64,000 nt of DNA from Lacrimispora sphenoides JCM 1415. GTDB lineage: Bacteria; Bacillota; Clostridia; Lachnospirales; Lachnospiraceae. The stretch spans positions 496,001 through 560,000 of the forward strand of contig NZ_LT630003.1 in assembly GCF_900105615.1 (NCBI RefSeq). The letters run 5' to 3'. The notes under the pieces were generated by a model. That model saw only the letters and a program-made list of their open reading frames with translations. It made no database searches and had not been told where the DNA came from. Shown piece after piece: positions 2 through 17,705 of this stretch; position 1 is the stretch's first letter; the number at the start of each line of letters is the position of its first letter. The position numbers were made by a program, and so were the translations under genes.

Positions 2-1459
2 CCTCTGTTGGAAGGGGAAAAGGTGAGGATCGAAAAGATTCTTTATACGGAAGCGGTTCTGGTGGATTCGGAAACGTTCCCCCAAGGCGGGCAGGACTTG
101 CGCCCTCATGTCATAAACCGTTCTTTTGCGGAACTGCTAAAAGACAGCGAAGGGGCCTGGAAATCCCGCTGGGACCAGGCCGACATAGAGATTACCCAAA
201 AAGGAAACGACAGCACCATTCAGTCCGCCCTGCGGTACAATTTATTTCAGCTTATTCAAAATTGCCCCTTTGAGGACGCGACAGTCAGCATTGGCGCAAG
301 GGGCCTGACCCATGGACGGTATAAGGGCTGCTGTTTTTGGGATACGGATATTTTCCTGCTGCCGTTTTACCTGTATACGGACCCGCAGGCCGCAAGAAAT
401 TTAATCCTGTTTCGCTTAAATACTCTGCCGGACGCAAAGAAGAACGCAAAGGCGCTGAATCTGCCGGGGGCAAGGTATCCGTGGATGTGTGCCATAGGAG
501 GAATAGAACAGTGCCAGAGCTGGGACATCGGGCGTTGTGAGATTCACATTACCGCAGACGTAGCCTATGCGGTTGATAACTACTTAAAGGTTTCAGGAGA
601 TGAAACCCTGGATAGCCAGTCAGCGCAGCTGTATGTGGAAACCGCAAGATATTGGGCCGGAAGATTTTCCTATGACCAAAGAAAGGATGTATATAACCTG
701 CTCTTTGTGAAAGGACCCGACGAATACTGCGGCGTTTCGGGAAACAACGCCTATACAGTACTTTTAGCCCGCCATAATCTCCGGCTGGCTTTGCAGGCGG
801 TCCAGAGGAAAAAAGCGGCAGCTAAGGCTTCGGAAATGAAAACATGGCGGGACATCATAGAAAAAAGCCGGATTGAGTATGATTCAGACAGGGACTTGTA
901 CATTCAGGATGATAATTTCCTCCGGCTGGAAGCATTTCCGGGGCAGAAGGCCGGGGATGGAAGCGCAGCTTACCATCAGTACGATTTTGACTGGCTCCAA
1001 AGGTATCAGGTGTTAAAGCAGGCGGATCTGGTACTGCTCATGGTACTGAAGCCAGAATTGTTTACGGACCGGGAGCAAAAAGCGATCTGGGATTTTTATG
1101 AACCGCTGACACTTCATGATTCCAGCCTAAGCTTTGGGATTCACGCATGGGCGGCGGCATATTTGGGCCTGGAGCAGAAGGCTTGTGAATATTTTGATAA
1201 AAGCCTGTTTCTGGATCTGGAAAACCGGATGAAGAATACGGGGCGGGAAGGCATTCATTTGGCTGCGGCAGGGGCCACCTGGCAGTCGGTGGTTTTTGGA
1301 TTCGCAGGTCTGGCACTGGGAACCGACGGCAAGCCGGAGTTATCTCCAAAGCTTCCAAAGGACTGGGAACGTTTATCTTTTCACTTTTATATCAAAGGAA
1401 AGCGGTACCTTGCGGTGATTGACGGAGAAGGCGGTAAGATAGAAGCGGAAGAGGATTAA
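2..1459 (+). CDS. GH65 family glycoside phosphorylase, C-terminal part (cut by window edge)
   Basis: A GH65 enzyme, most likely an inverting disaccharide phosphorylase acting on an alpha-glucoside such as nigerose, kojibiose or maltose in the cytoplasm. The frame is open from the first complete codon. Members are usually about 750 residues, so the N-terminal beta-sandwich is missing to the left. Counting from the TTG codon at 8, visible barrel motifs are FWDTD (110-114), the conserved GPDEY block (236-240), whose Glu sits where the general acid is expected, and GIHLAAAGATWQ near 415, which resembles the family's phosphate-site segment. No signal peptide can be judged. It lies 26 bp upstream of a LacI regulator and probably shares its operon. 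Next to alpha-1,3/alpha-1,6 glucan genes, an alpha-1,3-linked (nigerose-type) substrate is my preferred guess. A hydrolytic GH65 trehalase-like role cannot be excluded. Confidence 0.85.
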   Translation, partial: PLLEGEKVRIEKILYTEAVLVDSETFPQGGQDLRPHVINRSFAELLKDSEGAWKSRWDQADIEITQKGNDSTIQSALRYNLFQLIQNCPFEDATVSIGARGLTHGRYKGCCFWDTDIFLLPFYLYTDPQAARNLILFRLNTLPDAKKNAKALNLPGARYPWMCAIGGIEQCQSWDIGRCEIHITADVAYAVDNYLKVSGDETLDSQSAQLYVETARYWAGRFSYDQRKDVYNLLFVKGPDEYCGVSGNNAYTVLLARHNLRLALQAVQRKKAAAKASEMKTWRDIIEKSRIEYDSDRDLYIQDDNFLRLEAFPGQKAGDGSAAYHQYDFDWLQRYQVLKQADLVLLMVLKPELFTDREQKAIWDFYEPLTLHDSSLSFGIHAWAAAYLGLEQKACEYFDKSLFLDLENRMKNTGREGIHLAAAGATWQSVVFGFAGLALGTDGKPELSPKLPKDWERLSFHFYIKGKRYLAVIDGEGGKIEAEED

Positions 1460-1485
1460 AAAATAATAAGAAGGAAGGTGATTTT

Positions 1486-2490
1486 ATGAAGCGGCCTGGT
1501 TTAAAGGATGTGGCAGAAAAGGCGGGGGTTTCCATAGCCACGGTGTCTTATGTGATCAATAATACGCCCTCGCAAAGCTTAAGTCCTGAAACAATTAAGC
1601 GGGTGAATGATGCCATAAAGGAACTGGGATACATCCCCAATCTGGCAGCCCGCACCCTGGTAAACAACAAAAGCAATTTATTAGGGGTGCTGATTCCCCA
1701 GACGGAATCAGGAAAAGAATTAATGTTCTCCAATCCCTTTTACGGCGATTTCATGTCGGCGGCAGAGTATACAGCCCGCAAAAGCGGTTATCACATCATG
1801 ATTTCCGGAGCCGATTCCGGCCAGACTTATGCGGAAGTGGCAAGGACCCGGGGACTGGATGGAGTGATCGTGGTGGGGATGAATGACGACGAGGAATGCC
1901 GTCAGTTAAAAACCTTGAACATTCCAGTGGTATTGGTGGACAGTTACTGCGAAGCTGCCGGCTTTCACAGGGTCAGCGTGGATGATATGCAGGGCGGGTA
2001 CATGGCGACGAAGTACCTGTTGGAAAAGGGACTTAGAAAGATTGCCCATGTGACAGGGCATGTCAATGACAGGGGCGTGAATTTCCTGCGCCATAAGGGG
2101 TATGAAAAGGCACTGGGAGAGTACGGATTGAATCCGGAGAAATCCTTGTTATTGTCGGGGGAAGTGTCCTTTGAATACGGCTGTGAAATGGGTGAATATC
2201 TGGCTGGGATGGCCGAACGGCCCGACGGGGTGTTTGTTTCCGCAGACATTCTGGCGGTGGGCTTATGTATGGGACTGCGCGGGAGGGGCGTTAAGGTTCC
2301 AAAGGACATTTCCGTCATAGGTTTTGACGATTCGCTGCTTTCCAAAACCTGTGATCCGCCCCTTACCACCATACATCAGGATGTAGCGGCAAAGGGTACG
2401 GAAGCGGTGAAACTTCTGATAAATGAGAACCACACACTACAGAACAAGGTATTTCCATTAACTTTGGTAGAAAGGGGATCAGTGCGCTGA
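1486..2490 (+). CDS. LacI family transcriptional regulator of the alpha-glucan locus
   Basis: Sugar-responsive DNA-binding repressor of the LacI/GalR family, 334 residues, the usual length. The N-terminus carries the helix-turn-helix LKDVAEKAGVSIATVSYVIN (residues 5-24) followed by the hinge-helix segment with NLAARTLVNNKSN. The rest is a periplasmic-binding-protein-like effector domain ending in the typical GFDDSLLSKTCDPPLTTIHQD block. The ATG at 1486 follows AAGGAAGGTGA at good distance. It sits between the GH65 gene and the ABC importer, so it presumably senses an imported alpha-gluco-oligosaccharide and controls this locus. A hairpin overlaps its stop codon (2472-2497). The effector is not readable from sequence. 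Confidence 0.93.
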   Translation: MKRPGLKDVAEKAGVSIATVSYVINNTPSQSLSPETIKRVNDAIKELGYIPNLAARTLVNNKSNLLGVLIPQTESGKELMFSNPFYGDFMSAAEYTARKSGYHIMISGADSGQTYAEVARTRGLDGVIVVGMNDDEECRQLKTLNIPVVLVDSYCEAAGFHRVSVDDMQGGYMATKYLLEKGLRKIAHVTGHVNDRGVNFLRHKGYEKALGEYGLNPEKSLLLSGEVSFEYGCEMGEYLAGMAERPDGVFVSADILAVGLCMGLRGRGVKVPKDISVIGFDDSLLSKTCDPPLTTIHQDVAAKGTEAVKLLINENHTLQNKVFPLTLVERGSVR

Positions 2491-2497
2491 TCCTTTT
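2472..2497 (+). terminator. Hairpin with T-run overlapping the lacI stop codon
   Basis: GGATCAG (2476-2482) pairs perfectly with CTGATCC (2487-2493) around a TGCG loop; flanking A and T runs extend the stem, and TTTT follows. It spans the regulator's stop codon and lies 48 bp before the binding-protein gene. It could be a weak terminator that separates regulator and transporter expression, or an mRNA-stabilising hairpin. Confidence 0.5.
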
Positions 2498-2545
2498 ACG
2501 AAAACAAAGCAACATCCATTCTTTCTATTAAGGAGACAGTTTATT

Positions 2546-3817
2546 ATGATGAAGTTAGCAAAAAAATGTAGATGGGCCGCAAGTGCAATGGTATGTACCG
2601 CAGTTTTACTTTCAGGCTGCAGTTCCAAAACTGCTGAAAAACCTGGAGCAGGAGAGGCGGTCACAATCCGCCTGGACCAGTTTTCAGGCAGCGGTGCATC
2701 TGAGGGGGCACTGAAAGAAATGATAGCAAAATTCAACGAGCAGTATCCAGGCATCAAGGTAGAACTGCAAAGCTTTGGTTATGACGATTATTTTACTCAG
2801 TTGCAGTCTAAAATCGTCGGCGGCAGCGCGGCAGACGTATTTGAATTGAATTTTGAGAATTTTGTAGCCTATGCGTCGGAAGATGTACTTTTGGACATCG
2901 GGGCTCTGATGGGGGATACTTCAGGCTTTAACCAGACGGCTTTGGAAGCCTTTCAGTACGGGGGAAAACAATTTGGAATTCCCAATTCCTTTTCTAACGT
3001 GGTGCTTGTATACAACAAAGATTTATTTGACAAGGCAGGAGCCGCCTATCCCACCGACGACTGGACCTGGACGGAAATGTTAGAAGCTGCAAAGAAAATC
3101 CGCTCCCTTTCCGGGGACACCTACGGCTTATACCGCCCCGTAAGTTTCCATGAATTTTACAAAGGAGTAAAGCAGAACGGCGGAAGCTTATTAAGCGGGG
3201 ATGGTGGGAAGTTTACGGTTAATTTACCGCAGAATGTGGAAACCCTGGAAATCATGTCCGGTTGGGTGACTGACAGCAATGTTATGCCTTCAGATGCACA
3301 GATGGGCGGCATGGGCGACTGGGATTTGTTTAAATCCGGACGCCTTGGCATGATTATAACCGGAATCTGGGCCTTCAGCGACTTTACAGACAACTGCGAT
3401 TTTGCCTGGGATGTGGCGGTGGAGCCGGGAAATACCGCGAAAGCCACTCATTTCTTCTCAAATGCCTACGTGGTTAACAAAGAAACCGCCAATCCTGAAG
3501 CCGCCGCTGCTCTGGCCGCCTTCCTGGCAGGAAGCAGGGAAGCCGCACAAATCCGAGTGGATTCAAGCTGGGAACTTCCGCCAGTTATCTATCAGGACGT
3601 ACTTGATTCCTATCTAAAGGTAACCCCGCCGGAGAACCGGGAAGCTGTATTTAAATCTCTGGATTATCTTGTAACACCGCCGGTGGTGAAACAGCAGTCT
3701 GAAATGCAGGAGATCATCACCAAGCACTTAAACAACGCCATTTCCGGGAACGTTACCGCTAAAGATGCTCTTGATGACTGTCAGGCGGAACTGGAACAGA
3801 AAATCAAATTAAACTGA
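2546..3817 (+). CDS. Sugar ABC transporter substrate-binding lipoprotein
   Basis: Extracellular solute-binding protein of the carbohydrate type (cluster B, CUT1 system), 423 residues. A basic N-terminus, a hydrophobic stretch and the lipobox LLSGC place the lipidated cysteine at residue 25, so the protein is anchored on the outer face of the membrane. The mature part begins with VTIRLDQFSGSG and has the usual two-lobed pattern rich in aromatic residues (DDWTWTEML, GIWAFSDF). AAGGAGA precedes ATGATG, so the start could be 2546 or 2549. Two permease genes follow directly. Given the flanking GH31 transferases, the ligand is probably cycloalternan or a linear alpha-1,3/1,6-gluco-oligosaccharide; this is inference from context. 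Confidence 0.92.
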   Translation: MMKLAKKCRWAASAMVCTAVLLSGCSSKTAEKPGAGEAVTIRLDQFSGSGASEGALKEMIAKFNEQYPGIKVELQSFGYDDYFTQLQSKIVGGSAADVFELNFENFVAYASEDVLLDIGALMGDTSGFNQTALEAFQYGGKQFGIPNSFSNVVLVYNKDLFDKAGAAYPTDDWTWTEMLEAAKKIRSLSGDTYGLYRPVSFHEFYKGVKQNGGSLLSGDGGKFTVNLPQNVETLEIMSGWVTDSNVMPSDAQMGGMGDWDLFKSGRLGMIITGIWAFSDFTDNCDFAWDVAVEPGNTAKATHFFSNAYVVNKETANPEAAAALAAFLAGSREAAQIRVDSSWELPPVIYQDVLDSYLKVTPPENREAVFKSLDYLVTPPVVKQQSEMQEIITKHLNNAISGNVTAKDALDDCQAELEQKIKLN

Positions 3818-3847
3818 CATTATCGAGCCTGACAGGAGGGAACTGCT

Positions 3848-4765
3848 ATGTATAAAAAACAGGGGGTAAGAGCCTTTATCTTTCTTTTGCCAAGTATGGC
3901 CGGACTTGTGTTATTTAATTTGATTCCTATTTTTGCCTCGCTGCTGCTCAGCCTCACCGATTGGTCGGGGTTAAGCAGAGTAAGGCTGTTCCACGGTTTT
4001 TTTCAATTTGTCGGCGACAAGTTCGTGGGGTTTTCCAATTACTCCCAACTTATCAAAGATCCTGAGTTTTGGGTGGTTTTGGGGCATAATGCCTATTTTA
4101 TTCTGCTGTACCTTCCACTGGTCCTGCTGTTTTCCTTAATGGTTGCCCTGATCATTCAGAGGAAGAGCCGCATGGCCTCTGTCTACCGGATGCTTTACTA
4201 CATACCGGTACTGACCAGCTGGGTGGCTGGAGCCTTGATCTGGAAATGGATGTTAAGTCCGGAATACGGGCCGATTAACAATGCCTTATCTGCCATAGGG
4301 ATCAAAGGGCCTTTATGGCTCCAAAGCGAGAGTTGGGCAATGCCCTCCATCGTCCTCGCCAGCGTGTGGAAGGATATGGGTTTTTATGGAATGATACTCC
4401 TTAGCGGCCTTTTGGCCATAAATCCGGAGTACTACGAGGCTGCCGAGATTGACGGGGCGGGTTATTTTCAAAAGTTTAAAAGCATCACTCTGCCCCTGCT
4501 GTCACCGATTTTGTTCTATGTCATTATGTTGTCCCTGATCAATGCCTTTCAGCTTTTTCCGCAGATCATGGTCATGACCAAGAACGGCGACGCAGGACCC
4601 AACGGGGCCACCATGGTCATGGTGGAGCGGATTTACAAATACGCCTTTAAATTTGGCCGTATGGGCTATGCGGCGGCCTGGTCCTGGGTGTTGTTTATCA
4701 TTATTTTTGGCTTTACCGTACTGCAAAACGTGCTGCAAAGAAAGTGGGTGTACTATGAGTCGTAA
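3848..4765 (+). CDS. Sugar ABC transporter permease (MalF-like)
   Basis: Inner-membrane permease of a CUT1 importer, 305 residues with about six hydrophobic segments. The cytoplasmic EAA loop EAAEIDGAGYFQKFKSI, which docks the ATPase, is near residue 200. It follows the binding protein by 30 bp with an AGGAGGG ribosome site, and its last 11 bp overlap the next permease. No ATPase gene is present in this locus, so a shared MsmX/UgpC-type ATPase encoded elsewhere is expected, as is common in Firmicutes CUT1 systems. Confidence 0.93.
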   Translation: MYKKQGVRAFIFLLPSMAGLVLFNLIPIFASLLLSLTDWSGLSRVRLFHGFFQFVGDKFVGFSNYSQLIKDPEFWVVLGHNAYFILLYLPLVLLFSLMVALIIQRKSRMASVYRMLYYIPVLTSWVAGALIWKWMLSPEYGPINNALSAIGIKGPLWLQSESWAMPSIVLASVWKDMGFYGMILLSGLLAINPEYYEAAEIDGAGYFQKFKSITLPLLSPILFYVIMLSLINAFQLFPQIMVMTKNGDAGPNGATMVMVERIYKYAFKFGRMGYAAAWSWVLFIIIFGFTVLQNVLQRKWVYYES

Positions 4766-5579
4766 AGCGGCATCCGGAGTTTTATACCATTTGACGGCTG
4801 TTTTGCTATCGGTCGTAACCTTGCTTCCGTTTTTCTGGATGCTGTCCACTTCTTTTAAGAACTACGGTGCAATCATGGCCCTGCCCATACAGTGGATACC
4901 CAAAAACCCGACCCTTAAGAATTTCTCGGATTTGTTCAGCAAAGAGGGAATGACCGTTTCTATGTTTAATTCCCTTGTGGTCTCCATCAGTTCCGTAGCC
5001 GTGACGATCATCAGTTCCGCCATGGCCGCCTTTGCCTTTGCGAAACTGGATTTTAAGGGGAAGAACACCATTTTTCTTGTTTACCTGGCAACCATGATGA
5101 TCCCTTCCCAGGTGCTGTTCATCCCCCTTTACTTACTTATGGGAGAGCTGAAACTGGTGGATAGTCTGGGAGCTTTGGTACTGCCCAGTATATTCAAGGT
5201 GTTTGCAGTGTTTATGCTGCGCCAGCGCATGATGACGATTCCTAATGTCTATATGGAAGCGCCCGCGATTGACGGCGCGGGAATTTTTACTGTCTTTATA
5301 CGGATCATATGTCCCATGTGCAAGTCCAGCCTTGCCACTCTGGCAATTATCTGCTTTATGGACGCATGGAATGACTACTTACTGCCATTGGTCATGCTGA
5401 CTACAAAGACAAAGTTTACCCTGCCCATTATTCTAAGTTCCTTAAACGGGCAGTACAAAAGCGAATACAACTTACTTATGGCGGGAGCATTGGTCTCCAT
5501 GCTGCCGATTCTGGCGGTATATGCTATGGCGCAGAAGTATTTTGCAGCAGGATTACAGGTAGGAGGTGTGAAAGGATGA
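4755..5579 (+). CDS. Sugar ABC transporter permease (MalG-like)
   Basis: Second permease of the importer, 274 residues, about six transmembrane segments with the EAA-type loop MEAPAIDGAG. The frame is open further upstream, but I place the start at the ATG at 4755 (MSRKAASGV): the preceding permease ends at 4765, so the two overlap by 11 bp, which is typical of coupled translation, and upstream codons would give a very unlikely cysteine-rich N-terminus. The C-terminal FAAGLQVGGVKG is a family hallmark. Its TGA overlaps the ATG of the following GH31 gene. Confidence 0.93.
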   Translation: MSRKAASGVLYHLTAVLLSVVTLLPFFWMLSTSFKNYGAIMALPIQWIPKNPTLKNFSDLFSKEGMTVSMFNSLVVSISSVAVTIISSAMAAFAFAKLDFKGKNTIFLVYLATMMIPSQVLFIPLYLLMGELKLVDSLGALVLPSIFKVFAVFMLRQRMMTIPNVYMEAPAIDGAGIFTVFIRIICPMCKSSLATLAIICFMDAWNDYLLPLVMLTTKTKFTLPIILSSLNGQYKSEYNLLMAGALVSMLPILAVYAMAQKYFAAGLQVGGVKG

Positions 5580-7186
5580 AATGTTTGCTTGCTGGTCAGG
5601 CCGTTTACGGATTTGGAGAACGGTTTGACGCATTGAATCAGGAGGGGCTTGTCCGTGAAAATCATGTATACGAAACCTTTACCAATCAGGGGGCTTCCAC
5701 CTATTTGCCCATTCCCTTTGCATTGACAGACGGGGGAGGGGGTCTTTATGTGGACACAATGGAGAAGTTTACCATATTCACGGAAAAAACCGCTGACGGG
5801 ATCGTCTTTACGCTTCCGGACCAATATGATGTGCGGACATTTACGGGAAAGCCCTTGGAGGTTCTTAAAGAGTTTACGGCACTTACGGGGCGGCCCAGAG
5901 TGCCGCCGGACTGGGCTTTTGGCCTTTGGATGTCCGCCAACCGCTGGGATAGGCAGGAGGTGATAGAAGAAGTGGTGGAGGAAGCCGTCAGGCAGGGGAT
6001 GAAACCTTCTGTGGTGGTAATCGAAGCCTGGAGCGATGAAGCCACCTTTTACCGCTTTGACAAAGAACGTTTTCCCGATCCGGAAGGGATGATCCGGGAC
6101 CTTCACGAAAAGGGAATCCGTCTGATTCTATGGCAGATTCCGGTTTTGAAAAAGCTGGAGCCTTGGCGCACTTGCCCGGAACACGAGGCAGACTGTGCCG
6201 AAGCGGTCCAAAAGGGCTTTGTCGTTACCAATGCCGACGGATCTCCCTATCTGATTCCGGAAGGGCGCTGGTTCGGCGGTTCCATGATACCGGATTTCAC
6301 CAATCCGGCGGCCTGTGACTGGTGGTTTGGGAAACGGCAATATCTGCTTGATATGGGAGTGGACGGCTTTAAGACCGACGGCGGGGAGTTTGTATACGAC
6401 GACGGCGCCCGCTTTTTTGACGGTCGGACCGGTGCCCAAATGAAAAATGGTTATGCCATGGTTTATACCAGAGCCTATACGGACTTTATAAAAGATGACC
6501 GTATGCTTTTTTCCAGGGCCGGATATACGGGAGCTCAGACCACGCCTATGCACTGGGCCGGGGATCAGCAGTCCACTTGGGAAGAACTGCGCCATGTGGT
6601 GACGGCGGGTTTAAACGCCGGATTGTCAGGTCTGCCCTTCTGGGGCTTTGACCTGGCGGGCTTTGCGGGAAAAATGCCTTCCGCCGAATTGTATCTGCGA
6701 TCCTTCTGCCTAGCCTGCTTTGCACCGGTCATGCAGTGGCACTCGGAACCGGCTTCCGGCCAGTTTTCTGAGCTTCTGGCGGCTTCAGAAGAAGAAATCA
6801 ACGACAGAAGTCCATGGAATATGGCTAAGGTGACAGGCAGGCAGGAAATCATTGACATTTGCCGGAAATTTACAAAAGAAAGGGAGAGGCTGCTGCCTTA
6901 TATTCTTAAGGAAGCAGGCGTAAGTGCAGACACGGGCCGCCCCCTGATGGCCGCATTGGTGATTGACTGGCCGGAGGATAAGGAAGCTTGCGCAGTGGAC
7001 GACGAGTATATGTTCGGTTCGCAGCTTTTAGTGGCTCCGGTTTTAGAGGAAGGAGTGGTAGGACGGCAGGTATATCTGCCAAAAGGAAATTGGAACGATT
7101 ATTGGACAGGAGAACAAACTACGGGTCCATGCCGTTTGTACAAAGAATGCCGGGCGGGAGAACTATTGGTCTGGCGTTTGAACTAG
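5576..7186 (+). CDS. Short cytoplasmic GH31 glycosidase, candidate cycloalternan-degrading enzyme
   Basis: Family GH31 alpha-glycosidase, 536 residues, no signal peptide, so it acts on imported sugar. The retaining nucleophile is Asp268 in KTDGGE and the acid/base is Asp330 in WAGDQ. Sequence blocks closely parallel the secreted 1079-residue enzyme at 7246 (YGFGE, FGLWMSAN, LPFWGFDLAGF against IPFWSWDLAGF). The protein starts almost directly at the YGFGE segment, so most of the usual GH31 N-terminal beta-sandwich is absent; the start is fixed by the ATGA overlap with the permease. Intracellular GH31 enzymes that open cycloalternan to isomaltose are known from Listeria and Trueperella (from memory). 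That is my best assignment. An alpha-xylosidase or plain alpha-glucosidase is the alternative. Confidence 0.85.
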   Translation: MKCLLAGQAVYGFGERFDALNQEGLVRENHVYETFTNQGASTYLPIPFALTDGGGGLYVDTMEKFTIFTEKTADGIVFTLPDQYDVRTFTGKPLEVLKEFTALTGRPRVPPDWAFGLWMSANRWDRQEVIEEVVEEAVRQGMKPSVVVIEAWSDEATFYRFDKERFPDPEGMIRDLHEKGIRLILWQIPVLKKLEPWRTCPEHEADCAEAVQKGFVVTNADGSPYLIPEGRWFGGSMIPDFTNPAACDWWFGKRQYLLDMGVDGFKTDGGEFVYDDGARFFDGRTGAQMKNGYAMVYTRAYTDFIKDDRMLFSRAGYTGAQTTPMHWAGDQQSTWEELRHVVTAGLNAGLSGLPFWGFDLAGFAGKMPSAELYLRSFCLACFAPVMQWHSEPASGQFSELLAASEEEINDRSPWNMAKVTGRQEIIDICRKFTKERERLLPYILKEAGVSADTGRPLMAALVIDWPEDKEACAVDDEYMFGSQLLVAPVLEEGVVGRQVYLPKGNWNDYWTGEQTTGPCRLYKECRAGELLVWRLN

Positions 7187-7245
7187 TTTAACAAAAAGAA
7201 ACCATTTCACAAGGAAATAATACTTATGAAAAATGGAGGGGACAT

Positions 7246-10200
7246 ATGAGAAAGAAGCTAATGGCCATTTTACTGAGCATATGCTGTATTTTGCTCAACG
7301 TTTCACCAGCCTTTGCGCTTGAAGGAACGTGGCACAATCCTTATGGATTAAATGATATTTATGAAATAGAACCTACCGAGCGTTCACCCAGGAATCCAAT
7401 AGCAGGCCAGTCCGTGCGGATACACAGCACCACCTGGCCTGTGGAATCCGGCCAGACGGTTTGGATTTCCTACACCGTAAACGGTGTCAGAAAGGCGGAC
7501 GTAGGCGCAGGCTGGTCCTATAACAGCGGGAACAATTCTTATTGGGAGGCGGATTTGGGCTCCTTTGCAAAAGGAGATACAGTGGAGTATACGGTCCACG
7601 GGGACGTAAATGGCACGAACGCCAAATCCATCGGTCCCTTTACCTTTCACGTGACCGACTGGGAAAAAGTGAAATCCGTATCTTTAAATTCCTATAACAA
7701 CGGAACCGTCCTTTTTGACGTGACGGCAGATACGGGGAATTTCTCCCCTAAGCTGGCTCTTAGCTTTACGGACGAGGAGACGGTGCGTTTCCAGCTTTCC
7801 CCAAAGGGAAACGGAAAATTTGCTACCGGTATTTCCGGTTACACCGTGACAGATAATGCCCAAAAGGTGGAGATAGATACCGGAAAACTGCGGGTTACCG
7901 TTACAAAGAACCCATACGCCTTAGAGGTGTTCAGTTACGAACACAACAGGGTTTTGACTTCTAACGGCGGAATGGGCAAAGAGATGTCCTGGCTGACCGA
8001 CGGAAAGGACGTGATCGGGCAGTTCCGGGACGGATACTTCTCCCCTTTCGATGAGCGGTTCTATGGTTTCGGAGAGCACTATGACGGTGCGGAGAAACGG
8101 GGAGAGGTGGTTGAAACCTACATTTATAATCAATATCAGAACCAGGGCAGTAAAACCTATTTGTCGGTTCCCTTTTTCGTTACCAGCAAAGGCTACGGAA
8201 TTTACTTAAATACCACCTGTTACTCCAGGTTCGATATGGCAGCAGCCGATGGGGACCGGTATGTGTTTGAAGCTGACACGGAACATGTGGATTCGCCCCT
8301 TTTGGATTACTATCTGATCAGCGCAAGTACGGCTGCGAAAGTGGTGGGAAAATACAACACAATTTCCGGATTGCCCCAGGAACTTCCCAAATGGGCCTTC
8401 GGTTTGTGGATGTCAGCCAATGAATGGGATACCCAGTCAGAAGCGCTGGAAGCCATGAACCAGTCTAAGAACAACGACATTCCGGCTACGGTTTTAGTGC
8501 TGGAACAGTGGAGCGACGAAAACACATTCTACGTCTGGAATGAAGCTACCTATACGCCGATTCAAGGCTCGGCTGCTTTCCGCAATTCGGATTTTACCTA
8601 TGGCTCTAAATGGCCCAATCCAAAGGCGATGACAGACACTCTTCATGAAAATGGCATGAAACTGGTGCTGTGGCAGATACCCGTATTAAAATACACGCCT
8701 TACTCCTATGCGCAAAAGGACAATGACGAGGCCTATATGCTCCAGAAGGGATACGCCGTTTCCGACGGGCATGGAGGGCCCTACCGCATACCCGAATCAG
8801 GATGGTTCGGAAACAGTCTGCTTTTGGATTTCACCAATCCTGAGGCAGTCGATTGGTGGATGAATAAGCGCTCCTATCTTTTTGACGACATAAAGATAGA
8901 CGGCGTAAAAACAGACGGCGGGGAAATGGTCTGGCGTAAGGATACTTCCTTCCATGACGGCAGTACCGACCTTTCCATGCGAAATGCATATCCCAACGCC
9001 TACATAAAGGGATATAACGACTTTGTGAAGAAAAAGACAGGGGAAGGAATTACCTTCAGCCGGTCGGGAACCGCAGGCGTTCAGTCCTCCGGAGCCTTTT
9101 GGGCAGGAGATCAGACCTCCAGCTTTTCCGCTTTCCGGGACGCTTTGAGTGCCGGTTTGAGTGCCGGAATTTCAGGGATCCCTTTCTGGAGCTGGGATTT
9201 GGCCGGGTTTACGGGGAACTTCCCTTCGGCTGAGCTCTATAAGCGCAGTACCCAGATGGCTGCTTTTGCCCCGGTTATGCAGTTCCACTCCGAGAAGGCC
9301 AACCCCTCTCCCAGTGAGGAACGCTCCCCCTGGAACGTTCAGAGCCGCACAGGTGACAGCAGTATCGTTCCCATGTTCCGCAAATACATCAACACCCGTA
9401 TGAACCTGCTTCCCTATATTTTCAGCGAGGCGCAAAACAGTGCAAAGGGCGGAACACCCATGATGAGGGCCATGTTCTTAGACAATCCGGAAGATGCCAA
9501 TACCTATGACCTGGAAGAACAGTATATGTTCGGGCGCAGTCTTTTGGTGGCGCCTGTGGTCCAGGAGGGACAGACAGTAAAGAGCGTTTACTTACCCGAA
9601 GGGGAATGGATCGATTTCTGGCACAACGCCCTGACCGCGGGCGGCATGAAGAAAGACTATTATGCGGATGTGAACTCGATCCCCGTTTACGTGAAATCCG
9701 GCAGTATTCTGCCCCTTAATTTAAATAAAAACTATGAGATCGGCGGTTCCATCGGCAATGATGTGGAGAATTACGAAAACCTTACGTTCCGTATCTATCC
9801 GGAAGGGGAAAGTACCTATACCTTGTCCCATAGTGACCGGAGTACCATGACGGTCCGGGCTACCGAGAATTTTGCGGCTGGTACTGTAACTGTTCATCTG
9901 CCTTCCTGCCAGATTCCAATCACCACGCAAGTCTTTGGAACCAGACCCGGCAGTGTAAATGCAGACGGTCAAACATTACAGGAAGTGAAAACTCTGGATG
10001 ACTTAATAAAGGCGCAGAGTGCGTACTACTACAACGAAAATGAAAAGCTTACCTATATCAAAACACCGTCCGGTCCGGCTAAGAAGATCGAATTAAACGA
10101 CGTAAACAAAGCGCCTTATGAAGCCGAACACGCATCCCTGCATCAGGTTTCCACCAACACGGATTACAGCGGCTATTATGGGGAAGGCTTTGTGGATCAG

Positions 10201-10485
10201 TTTGCGGATAAAGGCGACTGGGTGGAATTTGAGGTATATTCAAAAGAAAAACGCACGGCTTCCCTGTCAGTCCGTTATTCTGCCGGAGTGACCGCAGGAC
10301 AGCGTTCCGTAAGGGTCAACGGGGGAAACATCAGCGCTTTGGCCCTGCCGGCTACTTCCGGCTGGGGTGCCTGGAATACCGCAGACATTCCTATTAACTT
10401 AAACAGCGGCAGAAACACGATCCGGATCTCCTATGAAGACGGAGATTTTGCCGGTATTAATCTGGACTGTATTCTGGTTAAATAA
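7246..10485 (+). CDS. ctsY: Secreted GH31 with C-terminal CBM35-like module; likely isomaltosyltransferase (cycloalternan-forming)
   Basis: Large extracellular GH31 enzyme, 1079 residues. A signal peptide ends near PAFA|LEG (about residue 25). An N-terminal beta-rich region (about 25-260) precedes the catalytic barrel, with nucleophile Asp557 in KTDGGE and acid/base Asp622 in WAGDQ. Proximal and distal beta domains follow, and a CBM35-like module fills about 955-1079 (EAEHA at its start, NLDCILVK at its end). Size and architecture match, as I recall, the CtsY alpha-isomaltosyltransferase of Bacillus globisporus and Listeria Lmo2446, which transfer isomaltosyl units to alpha-1,3 positions and cyclise them into the tetrasaccharide cycloalternan. 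The partner gene 11 bp downstream is the matching 6-glucosyltransferase candidate. The GH31 assignment is firm; the transferase specificity is inferred from architecture and neighbours. The gene symbol is tentative. Confidence 0.82.
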   Translation: MRKKLMAILLSICCILLNVSPAFALEGTWHNPYGLNDIYEIEPTERSPRNPIAGQSVRIHSTTWPVESGQTVWISYTVNGVRKADVGAGWSYNSGNNSYWEADLGSFAKGDTVEYTVHGDVNGTNAKSIGPFTFHVTDWEKVKSVSLNSYNNGTVLFDVTADTGNFSPKLALSFTDEETVRFQLSPKGNGKFATGISGYTVTDNAQKVEIDTGKLRVTVTKNPYALEVFSYEHNRVLTSNGGMGKEMSWLTDGKDVIGQFRDGYFSPFDERFYGFGEHYDGAEKRGEVVETYIYNQYQNQGSKTYLSVPFFVTSKGYGIYLNTTCYSRFDMAAADGDRYVFEADTEHVDSPLLDYYLISASTAAKVVGKYNTISGLPQELPKWAFGLWMSANEWDTQSEALEAMNQSKNNDIPATVLVLEQWSDENTFYVWNEATYTPIQGSAAFRNSDFTYGSKWPNPKAMTDTLHENGMKLVLWQIPVLKYTPYSYAQKDNDEAYMLQKGYAVSDGHGGPYRIPESGWFGNSLLLDFTNPEAVDWWMNKRSYLFDDIKIDGVKTDGGEMVWRKDTSFHDGSTDLSMRNAYPNAYIKGYNDFVKKKTGEGITFSRSGTAGVQSSGAFWAGDQTSSFSAFRDALSAGLSAGISGIPFWSWDLAGFTGNFPSAELYKRSTQMAAFAPVMQFHSEKANPSPSEERSPWNVQSRTGDSSIVPMFRKYINTRMNLLPYIFSEAQNSAKGGTPMMRAMFLDNPEDANTYDLEEQYMFGRSLLVAPVVQEGQTVKSVYLPEGEWIDFWHNALTAGGMKKDYYADVNSIPVYVKSGSILPLNLNKNYEIGGSIGNDVENYENLTFRIYPEGESTYTLSHSDRSTMTVRATENFAAGTVTVHLPSCQIPITTQVFGTRPGSVNADGQTLQEVKTLDDLIKAQSAYYYNENEKLTYIKTPSGPAKKIELNDVNKAPYEAEHASLHQVSTNTDYSGYYGEGFVDQFADKGDWVEFEVYSKEKRTASLSVRYSAGVTAGQRSVRVNGGNISALALPATSGWGAWNTADIPINLNSGRNTIRISYEDGDFAGINLDCILVK

Positions 10486-10496
10486 GGGGGAGCAGT

Positions 10497-13400
10497 ATGA
10501 AACAGAAAAAACGTTTTCTATCTTTAAGTTTAGTATTTACCTTATTGTTCACCGCTCTGTGGCCGGCCTTTGTGCCGGCCCCGGCCAGGGCGGCCGTATC
10601 TGCTTTAGGTGACGTAATTAGTACGCAGGTCAATGGAACCACACTGGTCCTCACCGTGGACAGCGGTTCCTCTCCTTCGGATAAATTAACGCTGGAAGTT
10701 TGTGACGAGGATATTCTGCGGGTGAATTACCAGCCTGATGGAGTAGTTTCCAGTGAGCGGACCCCCATGATCGATCCAGGTCTGAAATGGGATGCAAGTG
10801 CCGCCGTCATTAATACAACTTCCGATCCCATGACCATAAAGACGGACGAAATGCAGGTTGAAATTAACAAAAAGCCCTGCCGGATGACGGTGAAGAAAGC
10901 CGATGGCACGACCTTGTTTTGGGAACCTCAAAGCGGTGGAGTTTTCCACGATGGCGTTCGCTTTGTCCGCCAGGATTCCACGAACCTGTACGGAATCCAC
11001 AGCTTTGACTGTTTTGATGAAAACGGTAATCTGCTGCGAAATGACAACACCCAGGCTGCCAGGGCAGGCCAGCAGGGCAATTCTGGCGGTCCCTTCCTCT
11101 GGTCCACAGCAGGCTATGGTTTACTGGTGGATTCGGATGGCGGCTACCCCTATACCAATTCCAGGGATAAGAAAATGGAATTTTACTATGGGGGAACTCC
11201 GGTGGAAGGCCGCAGGTATGAAAAAGATAATGTAGAATATTTCATTTTGCTGGGAGAGCCAAAAGAGATTATGAAAGGCTATTCCAAAATTACAGGAACT
11301 TCCCCCATGCTCCCCAAGTGGGCGCAGGGCTTTTCCAATTTTGAGTGGGGGATCAACGAACAGGAATTGATGGAAATGATTGATACCTACCGGGCAAAAA
11401 ACATTCCCTTGGACAGCTACGCGTTTGACTATGACTGGAAGCTTTACGGACAGGACAACTATGGGGAATTTAAGTGGAATACGGGGAATTTCCCCTCTGC
11501 AGGAAGCGGTGCCTTAAAAAACACCATGGACGCAAAGGGCGTGAAAATGATCGGAATTACCAAGCCCCGGATCGTAACAAAGATTTCCGGCGGTACAACT
11601 ACCGCACAGGGACAGGAAGCGGCAAATAACGGATATTTCTATCCGGGACACAATGAATACGTGGATTATTTCTATCCTGTCACGGTACGCAGCATTGACC
11701 CTTACAAATCCGGAGAGCGGGCCTGGTGGTGGAACCACTCCATTGATGCATTTACAAAGGGGATCGTGGGCTGGTGGAATGATGAAACAGATAAGGTTTC
11801 CTCCAATGGGGCTGAGTACTGGTTCGGAAACTATAACACCTTGCATCTTGCCCAGTCTATTTATGAAGGACAGCGGGACTATTCCAAGAATAATACCCGT
11901 GTGTGGCAGACGGGCAGAAACTACTATCCAGGTACCCAGCGCTTTGCCACCAGTATATGGTCAGGAGACGTTGCCACTCAGTTTTATAAAGGTGAGCGGG
12001 TTTCCTGGGCTGCCGGCTTAAACGAACAGAAGGCTGCCCTGCTTTCTACCGTAAATAACGGACAGCCGAAATGGGGTTCAGACGGAGGGGGCTTTAATCA
12101 AAATTCAGGAACCATTGAAAACCCCAGTCCGGAGCTTTACACCCGCTGGCTCCAGTTTGAATCCGTTGTGCCTGTGTTCCGGGTGCACGGAAACTTAAAC
12201 CAACAGCGCCAGCCCTGGTATTACGGCTATACGGCAGAGGAAAATGTAAAAGCAGCCATTCACTTGCGCTACTCCCTGATGCCTTATTTCTATGCCTATG
12301 AAAGAGAGGCTTACGAAAGCGGCTTGGGCCTGGTGCGTCCTCTGCTGTTTGATTATCCTCAGGACGACAAGGTAAAGGATTACTCGGACGCATGGATGCT
12401 GGGAGACTGGCTTCTTGCGGCTCCGGTTACGGAGCGGGGGCAGTCCTGCAAATGGATTTACCTCCCAGAGGGAAACTGGATTGACTACAACAGGGGAACC
12501 GCATATAACGGTGGAGAATATATTCCTTACAGCCTGGACACCCAGTCCTGGTCCGACCTGCCACTCTTTGTGAAGGAAGGGGCCATAATCCCCTCACAGG
12601 ATGTAGAGGATTACGTAGGTCAGAAGGAAACGGAACGCATTTTTGTAGACATTTTCCCTTCATCCCAGAAGACGGAGTTTCAATATTATGACGATGATGG
12701 CATTACCTATGATTACGAAAACGGAACGTATTTCTCTCAGACCATATCCGGTCAGAAAAGTTCCGGACAGGTTAACGTCGGCATATCGGCCAAATCCGGA
12801 AGCTACAAAAACGGTGTGGATTACTATTACCTGGCTGTTCATGGCAGCGCCGCCGGACAGGTGAAGAAAAATGCCTCCCAGTTACAGGAATACACCGACT
12901 TAAATGCCCTATTTGCCGCAAACGGCGGGGGATTTGCAAATTCCAGGGACATTTACGGGGAAGTTACTTATATAAAAACCCAAGCGGGCTTGTCAAATGC
13001 GGATACACTGGTGTTAACCGGTAACCCGGCAGTCACACTTTCCGATCAGAAGTACGAAGCGGAATACGCCTCCCTTTCCGGTAAAACAGTGGCCGGCCAG
13101 CCCCAGGTGGGCAGGGACCATACAGGATTTTCCGGCACTGGTTTTGTGAACGGTATGGAAACAGAGCAGGCGGCAGTGACTTTCTATGCAAAAACCGCAA
13201 ATCCGGGGGATTATGAGGTAACCTTGCGCTGTTCCAACGGTGCAAAGACCGCAAAAACCTTATCCGCATACGTTAACGGCACATACAGCGGCCAGGCGGA
13301 CATCGCTTCTACCGGAAACTGGGATTCCTGGGGAGATGTGAAAATACTCCTTCCCCTCACCGCGGGCAGTAACAGCATCACGTTCAAATACGATCCGAAG

Positions 13401-14327
13401 GCAGGGGATACAGGTTTTGTAAATATTGATTATCTGTCGGTTCCCTTTGAACCGGAACGCATGGTAATAGAAGCGGAGAATGCTCCTCTTTACGGGACTG
13501 CAAAAACGAACCAGGATCATTGGTTCTACAGCGGCAGCGGTTTTGTGGATACCATGGTTTCACAGAATGCGGAAGTAGCCTTTGAGGTCGATATGGAACA
13601 AGGCGGAGCCTATACCGCAGATTTCCGCTACAGCAACGGAAACCAAAGCACGAAGGATTTAAACTTATATGTAAATGGAAGTTATGCAGGCAATCTGCAA
13701 TTTGCCGCTTCAGGCGGAAATTGGAACATCTGGAAGACCGTGAGCACCAATCTGGCGCTTTCAAAGGGAAGAAACCGGATTTCCCTTCGCTACGACGCGG
13801 GCAATTCCGGCAACATTAACCTTGACAAATTGACCCTGTCTGGTGCCGGTTCCGGTACTTATCGGGAAAACCTTTTGGACAATGGGGATTTCGAGCGTTC
13901 CACTTCCTTTAATTCCAACTGGACAGAGTGGCATCCCAGCGGCCAGGGGTTAGCTTACGGCATTGATTCCGGTTCCGGCACAAATAAGCCGGAATCTCCG
14001 GTGGAAGGCGACAAGCGGGCGTATTTCTACCATGCAGCCGCTTATGAGCAAAGCATTCATCAGGGGCTTAACGTGGAAAACGGAAGCTACCGGGTGGAAG
14101 CCTTTGTAAAGGTGGTAAATACTTCTCCGGGAGTTAGCCGCATGGAGATCACAAACTACGGCGGCAATGCGGTTTACGTGGATATGCCAAAGTCGGGAAG
14201 CGGGTGGCACAAAATAGAGGCGGACAATGTATTGGTCACAAATGGTACCATTGACGTTGGATTCTATTGTTCTTCCAGCGGTGGGACCACGGTACATATT
14301 GATGATGTGAGATTGTATAGGAATTAA
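10497..14327 (+). CDS. ctsZ: Secreted multimodular GH31, likely 6-alpha-glucosyltransferase, with two CBM35-like modules
   Basis: Extracellular enzyme of 1276 residues. A signal peptide ends near ARA|AVS (about residue 33). The GH31 catalytic domain carries the nucleophile Asp429 in WWNDE and the acid/base Asp491 in WSGD, a motif variant different from the neighbour's KTDGGE. C-terminal modules: CBM35-like at about 851-980 and 988-1114 (both open with an EAE motif), then a jelly-roll carbohydrate-binding domain at about 1121-1276 starting NLLDNGDFE. Size and layout resemble CtsZ/Lmo2444-type enzymes (from memory), which transfer glucose from maltodextrin ends to 6-OH and create the isomaltosyl ends used by the partner enzyme. 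GGGGGAG precedes the ATG. The gene ends the operon, before a hairpin terminator. Specificity is inferred; the gene symbol is tentative. Confidence 0.82.
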   Translation: MKQKKRFLSLSLVFTLLFTALWPAFVPAPARAAVSALGDVISTQVNGTTLVLTVDSGSSPSDKLTLEVCDEDILRVNYQPDGVVSSERTPMIDPGLKWDASAAVINTTSDPMTIKTDEMQVEINKKPCRMTVKKADGTTLFWEPQSGGVFHDGVRFVRQDSTNLYGIHSFDCFDENGNLLRNDNTQAARAGQQGNSGGPFLWSTAGYGLLVDSDGGYPYTNSRDKKMEFYYGGTPVEGRRYEKDNVEYFILLGEPKEIMKGYSKITGTSPMLPKWAQGFSNFEWGINEQELMEMIDTYRAKNIPLDSYAFDYDWKLYGQDNYGEFKWNTGNFPSAGSGALKNTMDAKGVKMIGITKPRIVTKISGGTTTAQGQEAANNGYFYPGHNEYVDYFYPVTVRSIDPYKSGERAWWWNHSIDAFTKGIVGWWNDETDKVSSNGAEYWFGNYNTLHLAQSIYEGQRDYSKNNTRVWQTGRNYYPGTQRFATSIWSGDVATQFYKGERVSWAAGLNEQKAALLSTVNNGQPKWGSDGGGFNQNSGTIENPSPELYTRWLQFESVVPVFRVHGNLNQQRQPWYYGYTAEENVKAAIHLRYSLMPYFYAYEREAYESGLGLVRPLLFDYPQDDKVKDYSDAWMLGDWLLAAPVTERGQSCKWIYLPEGNWIDYNRGTAYNGGEYIPYSLDTQSWSDLPLFVKEGAIIPSQDVEDYVGQKETERIFVDIFPSSQKTEFQYYDDDGITYDYENGTYFSQTISGQKSSGQVNVGISAKSGSYKNGVDYYYLAVHGSAAGQVKKNASQLQEYTDLNALFAANGGGFANSRDIYGEVTYIKTQAGLSNADTLVLTGNPAVTLSDQKYEAEYASLSGKTVAGQPQVGRDHTGFSGTGFVNGMETEQAAVTFYAKTANPGDYEVTLRCSNGAKTAKTLSAYVNGTYSGQADIASTGNWDSWGDVKILLPLTAGSNSITFKYDPKAGDTGFVNIDYLSVPFEPERMVIEAENAPLYGTAKTNQDHWFYSGSGFVDTMVSQNAEVAFEVDMEQGGAYTADFRYSNGNQSTKDLNLYVNGSYAGNLQFAASGGNWNIWKTVSTNLALSKGRNRISLRYDAGNSGNINLDKLTLSGAGSGTYRENLLDNGDFERSTSFNSNWTEWHPSGQGLAYGIDSGSGTNKPESPVEGDKRAYFYHAAAYEQSIHQGLNVENGSYRVEAFVKVVNTSPGVSRMEITNYGGNAVYVDMPKSGSGWHKIEADNVLVTNGTIDVGFYCSSSGGTTVHIDDVRLYRN

Positions 14328-14341: not shown

Positions 14342-14394
14342 CGGCACATGGAGAAGGTCTTGTGAAAAGTCTTCCGATGTGCCGTTGCTTTTGC
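14342..14394 (+). terminator. Terminator of the alpha-glucan operon
   Basis: CGGCACAT (14342-14349) pairs with ATGTGCCG (14377-14384); an inner GAAG/CTTC pair extends the stem, and TTGCTTTTGCTCTT follows. It sits 15 bp after the stop of the last gene of the operon. Confidence 0.7.
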
Positions 14395-14651
14395 TCTTCC
14401 AGCAGAAACGCACGGTTTATATTGAAGCGAATCGGATACGGAGATTTTTTTGATACGGTTGTTGGCTGCTATGATGAAGCAAAAGAGGAGTGGTGAAAAG
14501 TAAATGCTGATGAACAATGAATATGCACATGTTGTAACCTTACAATAAAAGCTGATATTTTTAATATGAAGAAAATAAAGGAAAAATATACTAAAATGTA
14601 AGTTGGAAATTATTCAAATAAAACAAAAAAATATATAAAACAAAAATATAA
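14395..14651. other. Intergenic stretch without a recognisable gene
   Basis: No supported gene between the terminator and the next promoter. The first 130 bp are of mixed composition with only short open frames. From about 14530 the DNA becomes strongly A/T-rich, as expected upstream of a promoter. Confidence 0.6.
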
Positions 14652-14703: not shown

Positions 14704-14725
14704 AGTAAAGGTTTTGGAGAAAAAG

Positions 14726-15781: not shown

Positions 15782-16724
15782 TAACACAAAGGCAAAAAAG
15801 AGAAAGGCTACAAAAGGTGACTGGGAACTTACCCTGATGGCGGTGCCCACAACCGTTTGGTATATTTTGTTTTGCTTTATGCCCATGTTTGGACTTATTA
15901 TCGCTTTTAAGGATTATAAAATTCAGCCTGGGAAAGGTTTCATCTATAATGTTATCCATAGCGAATGGTCGGGATTTAAGAATTTTGAGTTTCTGATTAA
16001 ATCCAATGATTTGTATGTGATATTAAGAAACACGATTGTTTACAATCTGATTTTTATTGTTATGGGCACTGCACTTGCAGTAATACTTGCCATTATGATG
16101 AATATGCTCCATAGCAGAAAAAGATCCAAAGTCTATCAAACGCTGATGTTTTTCCCTTATTTTATGTCCTGGGTTGTTGCAGCATATTTTCTGGATGCGT
16201 TTTTAAATTATGACAACGGTCTGATTAATAATATGATGCGAGATGTAGGAAAAACGGCAAATCAGTGGTACATGAACAAAAATGTATGGCCATTTATTCT
16301 GGTTATTATGTATTTGTGGAAGAGTACAGGATATAACATGGTTATTTATTTGTCCAGTATTTCGGGAATTGACCAGACGCTCTATGAAGCGGCGGTGATT
16401 GATGGTGCAGGCAAATGGCAGCAGACCAGATATATTACGCTTCCCAGCCTAAAAAATGTAATTATTATGATGTTCATTTTGAATGTGGGCAAGATTTTCT
16501 ATTCTGATTTCGGACTTTTTTACCAGTTGTCACAGGGGGCTAAGGGCTCGATTTTCAATTCGGTTGCAACCATTGACACCTATGTGTTTAATGCATTGAA
16601 GTCAGCAACTCCAATCGGGATGACATCGGCGGCATCCTTCTTCCAGTCGGTGGCATGTTGTATTACCATTCTTGCGGCAAATGCGATTGTGAAAAAGATT
16701 GATAACGAAAGTTCAATCATTTAG
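15765..16724 (+). CDS. LplB-type sugar ABC transporter permease
   Basis: Permease of a polysaccharide-type CUT1 importer, about 319 residues. It opens with the LplB signature KGDWELTLMAVPTTVWYILF, has about six membrane segments, and carries the ATPase-docking loop YEAAVIDGAG. The frame is open to an ATG at 15735, but that codon has no properly spaced ribosome site. TTG at 15765 follows AGAGGGATAAGG and overlaps the lacI end by 17 bp, so I prefer it, with some doubt. No ATPase gene is nearby. Confidence 0.9.
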   Translation: MKTLNSNTKAKKRKATKGDWELTLMAVPTTVWYILFCFMPMFGLIIAFKDYKIQPGKGFIYNVIHSEWSGFKNFEFLIKSNDLYVILRNTIVYNLIFIVMGTALAVILAIMMNMLHSRKRSKVYQTLMFFPYFMSWVVAAYFLDAFLNYDNGLINNMMRDVGKTANQWYMNKNVWPFILVIMYLWKSTGYNMVIYLSSISGIDQTLYEAAVIDGAGKWQQTRYITLPSLKNVIIMMFILNVGKIFYSDFGLFYQLSQGAKGSIFNSVATIDTYVFNALKSATPIGMTSAASFFQSVACCITILAANAIVKKIDNESSII

Positions 16725-16738
16725 AAAGGAAAACTGAA

Positions 16739-17674: not shown

Positions 17675-17705
17675 AACTTATTCAAAAAAAGAAGGGAGAG
17701 GTATT

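What the first reader, a model, noticed from the sequence alone, without database searches (positions are those of the whole stretch)
2..14327. Complete candidate cycloalternan locus in a clostridial genome, with GH65 phosphorylase attached
Seen: secreted GH31 enzymes of 1079 and 1276 residues with CBM35-like modules, a CUT1 importer, a cytoplasmic GH31, LacI and GH65 in one direction with minimal gaps. Known from memory: Bacillus globisporus ctsY/ctsZ and Listeria lmo2446/lmo2444 encode isomaltosyltransferase and 6-glucosyltransferase of very similar size, and an intracellular GH31 opens the ring. Inference: this organism makes cycloalternan from maltodextrin outside, imports it as a private good, and degrades it inside, with the phosphorylase saving ATP.
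Basis: partly seen in the sequence, partly recalled or inferred. Interest (0 to 1): 0.7.

Follow-up and report, generated by a model that had tools for sequence, protein, structure and literature searches.

The report
Clostridial cycloalternan operon with phosphorylase
A clostridium carries a full set of genes predicted to turn starch fragments outside the cell into a small ring sugar, import it and break it down with two uncharacterised inner-cell enzymes that the known versions of this pathway lack; some relatives keep the eating half without the making half.

Summary
Window 1486-14327 carries LacI, a CUT1 importer, a short cytoplasmic GH31 and two secreted GH31 enzymes. The 1079-aa enzyme falls in one clade with Listeria cycloalternan-forming enzyme, the 1276-aa one with 6-glucosyltransferase 5x7o; the lipoprotein's best structural match is Lmo0181. 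Cycloalternan making, import and opening is the best reading; no activity was tested. The locus starts outside the window with a GH125-like protein and a full 717-aa GH65, behind a promoter and LacI-type site identical in 6 of 7 Lacrimispora genomes compared. The GH65 keeps phosphorylase residues, matches none of six printed specificity motifs, and beta-phosphoglucomutase is in 5 of 6 named loci with GH65 against 0 of 25 without. The GH125-like protein joins a GH125-like barrel to a beta-sandwich. Five genomes hold the whole import/degradation set (a sixth part of it) without the ring-forming enzyme; one keeps a deletion scar. So 'private good' is doubtful. Verdict: new variant of a known pathway.

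The parts
2..1459 (+). C-terminal 485 aa of a 717-aa GH65 enzyme (whole gene G000:C1:495306-497459, L009 11306-13459); predicted inverting alpha-glucoside phosphorylase of unknown specificity
   Evidence: PF03636, PF03632, PF03633; kojibiose phosphorylase 320.6 bits, maltose phosphorylase 265.6 bits; motif
1486..2490 (+). LacI-family regulator, 334 aa
   Evidence: PF00356, PF13377; operator-like site before the first gene
2546..3817 (+). Lipoprotein solute-binding protein, 423 aa, predicted cycloalternan binder
   Evidence: Lmo0181 (5f7v) 362.6 bits, next best 105.4; LLSGCSS at residues 21-27
3848..4765 (+). CUT1 permease 1, 305 aa
   Evidence: PF00528
4755..5579 (+). CUT1 permease 2 (listed ORF starts at TTG 4653; ATG 4755 is the likelier start)
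   Evidence: (PF00528)
5576..7186 (+). Cytoplasmic GH31, 536 aa, predicted cycloalternan-opening enzyme (CADE-type), compact form without most of the N-domain and one barrel loop
   Evidence: TpCADE 5f7s 402.6 bits; 40% to TpCADE; motifs DGFKTDGGE, HWAGDQ
7246..10485 (+). [quoted passage not shown]
   Evidence: Lmo2446-like_N PF22681, GH31, CBM35; Lmo2446 1220.8 bits over 23-1079; clade 99*
10497..14327 (+). Secreted GH31, 1276 aa, predicted 6-alpha-glucosyltransferase
   Evidence: 5x7o 1565.5 bits over 29-1275; clade 100*; 61% over residues 29-701
14386..14463 (+). Remnant (26 codons) of a beta-phosphoglucomutase gene; an open gene stands behind the 6-glucosyltransferase in L. xylanisolvens (L030 17174-17836)
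   Evidence: 61.5% over 26 aa, E 2.4e-5

Best explanation
[quoted passage not shown] Outside, the 1276-aa enzyme moves a glucosyl unit onto maltodextrin ends by alpha-1,6 bonds, and the 1079-aa enzyme joins two isomaltosyl units into a ring by alpha-1,3 bonds. The lipoprotein and CUT1 permeases import the ring. Inside, the compact GH31 opens it at an alpha-1,3 bond. The GH125-like protein and the GH65 phosphorylase then finish it; my best guess is that the GH125-like protein hydrolyses alpha-1,6 ends and GH65 phosphorolyses an alpha-glucoside (alpha-1,3 or alpha-1,6) to beta-glucose 1-phosphate, which a mutase encoded elsewhere in this genome converts. LacI represses from a site behind the promoter in front of the GH125-like gene. 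Shown here: gene content, clade placement, conserved residues, synteny, promoter/site conservation, co-occurrence. Inferred: every reaction, the roles of GH125-like and GH65, secretion, and the regulation.
For: Full-length matches to solved relatives (8 for the catalytic part) and clade placement with Listeria CAFE (anchor checked) and 5x7o. Ring-forming enzyme and 6-glucosyltransferase are neighbours in 32 of 32 named loci, 31 distinct, and one 2331-aa reading frame in Fusibacter. GH125-like gene in 8 of 25 same-genus genomes, among them all 6 that hold the ring-forming enzyme. Beta-phosphoglucomutase in 5 of 6 named distinct loci with GH65 and 0 of 25 without (Fisher p 3.5e-5; two of the five are one species). 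GH65 keeps the general acid, two serines and a histidine of the phosphate site (my reading of the alignment). TTGACA-18-TATAAT and CTTAAACGTTTCAG are identical in 6 of 7 Lacrimispora genomes compared. Low pairwise dN/dS of the genes.
Against: No activity data. The compact GH31 lacks a barrel loop that TpCADE, CAFE, CtsX-like and the other clostridial CADEs aligned have, so its ring specificity may differ, and its score to CAFE (391) is near that to CADE (403). The GH65 motif matches none that I could read; three of its six positions equal the trehalose-6-phosphate phosphorylase motif if position 416 is taken as D. The phosphate-site lysine appears to be Arg, as in the phosphorylase BsGGP. The in-operon mutase is decayed here, and 6 of 16 GH65 loci show none in the stretch held. 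Fusibacter has the GH125-like gene without GH65. G008 differs in the -10 box and in one base of the LacI-type site. No transporter ATPase gene in the operon.
Confidence: 0.85

Rival explanations
1. The cycloalternan pathway is real, but GH65 and the GH125-like protein act on another alpha-glucoside (for example nigerose, kojibiose or a trehalose-type sugar) and are only co-regulated with it.
For: The GH65 motif fits none of the six motifs printed in PMC8537180 and shares three positions with that of trehalose-6-phosphate phosphorylase; distant GH125-like relatives sit beside two carbon-nitrogen hydrolase genes in 4 of 5 loci scanned.
Against: The GH125-like + GH65 + CADE-type + importer + LacI set is kept together in genomes of several families, also without the synthesis genes; pairwise dN/dS is low.
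Confidence: 0.25
2. GH65 is an isomaltose (alpha-1,6) phosphorylase that takes the place held by isomaltose hydrolase in Kribbella and perhaps by GH13 in some Bacilli; the GH125-like protein has an accessory role.
For: A GH13 gene stands between the CtsX-like GH31 and the ring-forming gene in Gracilibacillus L042 and Rossellomorea L045; Fusibacter has the GH125-like gene plus another, unidentified 623-aa protein, without GH65; beta-phosphoglucomutase linkage. The paper on the Kribbella pair was seen only as a reference title.
Against: None of the ten GH65 specificities in Table 1 of PMC8537180 acts on alpha-1,6 bonds. The barrel of the GH125-like protein is closest to alpha-1,6-mannosidases and over its whole length it aligns with glucodextranase, which makes it the better alpha-1,6 candidate. 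The GH13 genes score best as alpha,alpha-phosphotrehalase-type, and only 2 of 31 loci have one. The Fusibacter protein matched no relevant solved structure.
Confidence: 0.25
3. The secreted pair makes only linear isomaltosyl- or panose-type oligosaccharides or glucose, and the importer takes up those.
For: GH31 transferases and hydrolases share catalytic residues; no product was measured.
Against: Full-length homology including the Lmo2446-like N domain and CBM35, clade placement, Lmo0181-like binder, CADE-type GH31.
Confidence: 0.06

Closest known systems
Listeria monocytogenes cycloalternan pathway (Lmo2446 CAFE, Lmo0181 binder; Light et al. 2016, known from citations and recall only)
   Same: CAFE homologue (50% to the Listeria cossartiae protein), neighbouring 6-glucosyltransferase, Lmo0181-like binder
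   Different: In the three Listeria loci held (L053, L055, L061) no importer or degradation gene of this set was hit within the stretch; here all are in one operon with GH65 and a GH125-like protein
Kribbella flavida CNN catabolism (Kfla1895 GH31, PDB 5x3i; Kfla1896 GH15 isomaltose glucohydrolase, PDB 5z3a; mostly recall, plus passages and a reference title)
   Same: Cytoplasmic GH31 similar to 5x3i (344.2 bits) plus a barrel enzyme for the next step
   Different: GH125-like + GH65 instead of GH15; synthesis and catabolism in one operon here (two clusters in Kribbella, recalled)
Bacillus/Sporosarcina globispora cts operon (recalled; genome note PMC4616184 seen in listings only) and Paenibacillus/Cohnella loci L036-L041, L043, L044, L046-L048, L050, L056, L058, L059
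   Same: Importer genes, then ring-forming enzyme, then 6-glucosyltransferase
   Different: Different order inside the importer in Paenibacillus, a long CtsX-like GH31 (1238 and 1271 aa in the two Paenibacillus rows; label recalled) in Paenibacillus and none hit in Cohnella; no GH65, GH125-like or beta-phosphoglucomutase hit
GH65 phosphorylases (kojibiose, maltose, nigerose, alpha-1,3-oligoglucan)
   Same: Family domains, general acid, Ser-Ser and His of the phosphate site
   Different: Own motif D-M-[ASV]-[QHEG]-gap-x over this protein and 16 relatives chosen from the 120 listed
GH125 exo-alpha-1,6-mannosidase (CpGH125)
   Different: Extra N-terminal beta-sandwich, 19% identity, alpha-glucan context

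Membership tests
[quoted passage not shown]
[quoted passage not shown]
   SH-aLRT 99; anchor L055 verified against Lmo2446
[quoted passage not shown]
   No assay
6-alpha-glucosyltransferase (GH31, CtsZ/5x7o type) | Full-length homology and clade with 5x7o and the Listeria neighbour gene | tested here: met
6-alpha-glucosyltransferase (GH31, CtsZ/5x7o type) | Transfers glucosyl units by alpha-1,6 bonds | not testable with these tools
   No assay; that 5x7o is such a transferase is recalled (the PDB title says alpha-glucosidase)
Cycloalternan-degrading GH31 (CADE) | Closest solved relative is CADE; both catalytic Asp motifs kept | tested here: met
   (TpCADE 402.6 bits, Lmo2446 390.9 close behind)
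Cycloalternan-degrading GH31 (CADE) | Complete N-domain and barrel loop as in TpCADE | tested here: not met
   alignment starts at TpCADE residue 173, and about 21 loop residues are absent in the Lacrimispora form; the four other clostridial CADE-like rows keep the loop
Cycloalternan-binding protein (Lmo0181 type) | Best match among solved structures is Lmo0181 | tested here: met
Cycloalternan-binding protein (Lmo0181 type) | Binds cycloalternan | not testable with these tools
   No assay
GH65 phosphorylase | Three GH65 domains, general acid Glu, phosphate-site Ser-Ser-His | tested here: met
   E473, S606, S607, H651 by my reading of the alignment
GH65 phosphorylase | Phosphate-site lysine | tested here: inconclusive
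   Aligned residue appears to be R332; BsGGP also has Arg there
Kojibiose phosphorylase | Motif EEAPxx | tested here: not met
Maltose phosphorylase | Motif KV[MF]NES | tested here: not met
   the LbMP control row came out as KMTN-S, one column off at 392/394
Nigerose phosphorylase | Its motif or sequence clade | not tested
   Motif is only in a figure not held; no sequence obtained
GH125 | Pfam PF06824 over cut-off | tested here: met
   83.7 bits against cut-off 23.4, but only profile 207-409 of 414
GH125 | Exo-alpha-1,6-mannosidase activity | not testable with these tools
   Context argues for an alpha-glucoside

The most novel reading that the evidence does not exclude
Clostridia evolved an energy-saving route for cycloalternan: a GH65 phosphorylase of a new specificity (possibly the first acting on an alpha-1,6 bond, i.e. 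isomaltose) and a GH125-barrel protein turned alpha-glucosidase, feeding a dedicated beta-phosphoglucomutase. The degradation half has become a stand-alone module, and at least one non-producing consumer has arisen by deletion of the two secreted enzymes, so the ring is a shared good within Lacrimispora rather than a private one.
Probability: 0.3. Interest if true: 0.75.

Novelty: new variant of a known kind. Interest (0 to 1): 0.5.

Why it matters
It extends the cycloalternan pathway to anaerobic Clostridia and points to two enzymes of untested specificity that can be assayed directly. It also gives a natural producer/consumer pair with a readable deletion scar in one genus, which makes the 'private ring sugar' idea testable in co-culture. 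One mouse feeding study conjectured Bacteroides as the user of this ring sugar (PMC11397466, passages); a clostridial uptake module is another candidate (inference).

Tried and rejected
Rejected: a simple GH31 alpha-glucosidase locus (clade placement). Rejected: GH65 as kojibiose or maltose phosphorylase (motifs). Rejected: that all GH125-like proteins are cycloalternan genes; the 24 distant ones examined form the other side of a branch and none had a CADE or GH65 hit in the stretch held, though 2 of 24 (L138, L145) have importer-type genes near. Of 10 neighbour proteins scanned in 5 loci, chosen because their sizes recurred, 8 (4 loci) are carbon-nitrogen hydrolases; the fifth locus has a patatin and one without a family. 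Tried: terminator scan behind 14327, no hit passed, so no terminator is claimed. Tried: Fusibacter L049 4731-6599 as an isomaltose hydrolase; only a weak TIGR01577 hit (25 bits) and no relevant solved structure. Papers: 'isomaltose phosphorylase' 0 papers; 'GH125' with 'isomaltose' 1 paper, seen in the listing only; a clostridial cycloalternan locus was not seen in the listings (15 of 16 listed; 20 of 42; 12 of 12; 9 of 9), which show titles and abstract starts only. A structure of the compact CADE could not be run.

Limits: the tables share 15 contig lengths among 120 and 120 rows, which suggests linkage but is inferred from lengths. The named loci come from an exact-peptide scan and are close relatives only. 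L032 and L054 are short contigs and count among the 25 without GH65. L034 and L057 are one contig and were counted once. The trees are quick ones with SH-aLRT support; TpCADE is a long branch; the fused Fusibacter frame was entered twice and fell in the CAFE clade. The fold model is of P0001, 99% identical to the locus protein. Foldseek itself ranks GH94 phosphorylases first and GH125 from rank 42; the GH125 order comes from the second aligner. dN/dS is pairwise and includes the producer's lineage.
Full report
What is there. The window is G000:C1:496001-560000 of a 5.3-Mb genome. The nearest named loci are Lacrimispora xylanisolvens (86% for the ring-forming enzyme), and a 98% GH65 match is named Lacrimispora sphenoides MAG by its source, so the genus is Lacrimispora by inference. 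TTGACA-18-TATAAT stands at L009 9421-9450. It and CTTAAACGTTTCAG, a LacI-family-type palindrome just before the first gene, are identical in 6 of 7 Lacrimispora genomes compared; G008, a non-producer, has TATTGT and one changed base in the palindrome (for G002 the script caught an earlier TTGACA, and the alignment shows the promoter). The core AAACGTTT also lies between the GH125-like gene and the divergent LacI gene in two other genomes (L094, L149). The operon therefore most likely starts at the GH125-like gene (inference).

The secreted enzymes. The 1079-aa protein matches Lmo2446/cycloalternan-forming enzyme over residues 23-1079 (1220.8 bits; the next different protein 441.6) and carries the Lmo2446-like N domain and a CBM35. 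The 1276-aa protein matches 5x7o over 29-1275 (1565.5 bits; 61% over residues 29-701). In a 49-row tree both fall in the expected clades with Listeria and 5x7o anchors (99 and 100 SH-aLRT; the Listeria anchor L055 matches Lmo2446 with 2376 bits). The two genes are neighbours in 32 of 32 named loci (31 distinct), and in Fusibacter sp. 3D3 they are a single 2331-aa frame with both sets of domains. Signal peptides were judged by eye only.

The import and ring-opening genes. The lipoprotein's best solved relative is Lmo0181 (362.6 bits, next 105.4), which was solved with this ring sugar (passages of PMC7676653). The cytoplasmic GH31 is closest to TpCADE (402.6 bits) with Lmo2446 just behind (390.9), keeps both catalytic motifs and groups with four clostridial CADE-like proteins (98). 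In Lacrimispora it lacks most of the N-terminal domain and a barrel loop of about 21 residues that TpCADE, CAFE, three CtsX-like and the four other clostridial rows keep. Not all clostridial loci have this short type: L034 and L049 carry the long CtsX-like GH31. [quoted passage not shown]

GH65. All three GH65 domains are present. Against kojibiose phosphorylase I read the general acid as E473 and the phosphate-site Ser-Ser-His as S606, S607, H651 (alignment; site described in PMC8626586, abstract and one section read). At the six specificity positions of PMC8537180 (results and tables read) this protein reads D-M-A-Q-gap-D, and the 16 relatives that I chose among 120 have D-M-[ASV]-[QHEG]. 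That differs from the six motifs printed there: the group motifs of maltose and kojibiose phosphorylases, those of tested trehalose, alpha-1,3-oligoglucan and trehalose-6-phosphate phosphorylases, and that of subgroup 7. If the gap is right-justified, position 416 is D and three of six positions equal the trehalose-6-phosphate phosphorylase motif. Motifs for nigerose and glucosyl-rhamnose phosphorylases are in a figure that is not held.

Beta-phosphoglucomutase. Phosphorolysis by GH65 gives beta-glucose 1-phosphate. Genes over the TIGR01990 cut-off stand inside loci L030, L033, L051, L060 and L095. Among 31 distinct named loci, a mutase gene is found in 5 of 6 with GH65 (two of them one species) and 0 of 25 without (Fisher p 3.5e-5). 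Over the 16 GH65 loci held, it is open in 8 (G002, G003, G023, L033, L051, L060, G084, G844), a remnant in 2 (this window at 14386-14463 and G006), and not seen in 6 (G008, G012, G014, L034, G293, G833, the last on a 9-kb contig). This genome has three mutase genes over the cut-off elsewhere.

Producers and consumers. In 25 same-genus genomes, own included, the full-length ring-forming enzyme is in 6 and the GH125-like gene in 8; G008 and G012 have the import and degradation genes only, all open. G293, G084 and G844, in other families, are alike, and G833 shows the GH125-like, GH65, LacI and a CADE-like gene, its importer not seen. A whole-genome search of these 6 finds no ring-forming enzyme; the best hits are the CADE-like genes, none reaching query residues 1-199 (G833 is 82% complete). 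In G008 the CADE stop is followed, after 11 bases, by the last nine codons and stop of the 6-glucosyltransferase, and both flanks are syntenic (window 7187-14295 missing): the two secreted enzymes were lost by deletion. G012 has other sequence there and no scar. Pairwise dN/dS of six genes of the set against this genome is 0.03-0.10 (G008) and 0.07-0.14 (G012), like the producers. So the ring is at least potentially a shared good.

How it probably works. Maltodextrin is turned into cycloalternan outside, imported, opened at an alpha-1,3 bond, and finished by the GH125-like protein (alpha-1,6 ends, inferred) and GH65 (an alpha-glucoside bond, inferred). A route that uses all three enzymes without redundancy is alternating alpha-1,6 hydrolysis and alpha-1,3 phosphorolysis of the linear tetrasaccharide, saving one ATP per ring; an isomaltose phosphorylase would save two. 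Both are unproven.

Verdict. The finding is right in its core and incomplete at its edges. The pathway is known; the clostridial form with GH65, a GH125-like protein and a linked mutase, and the producer/consumer split, is a new variant in the material that I could search.

Noticed in passing
L049:9989-16984 (Fusibacter sp. 3D3): Ring-forming enzyme and 6-glucosyltransferase are fused in one 2331-aa open frame.
   Followed up: partly
L131, L135, L097, L099 (distant GH125-like relatives): In 4 of 5 loci scanned, two adjacent carbon-nitrogen hydrolase genes follow a GH125-like gene; an unexplained recurring trio.
   Followed up: partly
window 14714-24892: A second LacI/CUT1-like importer unit (by sequence and weak hits) with a GH38 alpha-mannosidase and a GH2-type enzyme directly downstream (Pfam for the two enzymes).
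   Followed up: no
L031 (L. xylanisolvens ASCUSBR21): GH125-like, GH65 and lipoprotein genes each appear in two pieces, while the other genes of the set are whole; sequencing error or decay not resolved.
   Followed up: no
L009:2-3808: A large RHS-repeat protein lies upstream of the operon.
   Followed up: no
L034/L057 (contig DUMB01000040.1): The same 19-kb cycloalternan locus was returned from both ends of one MAG contig, probably a repeated or circular end.
   Followed up: no
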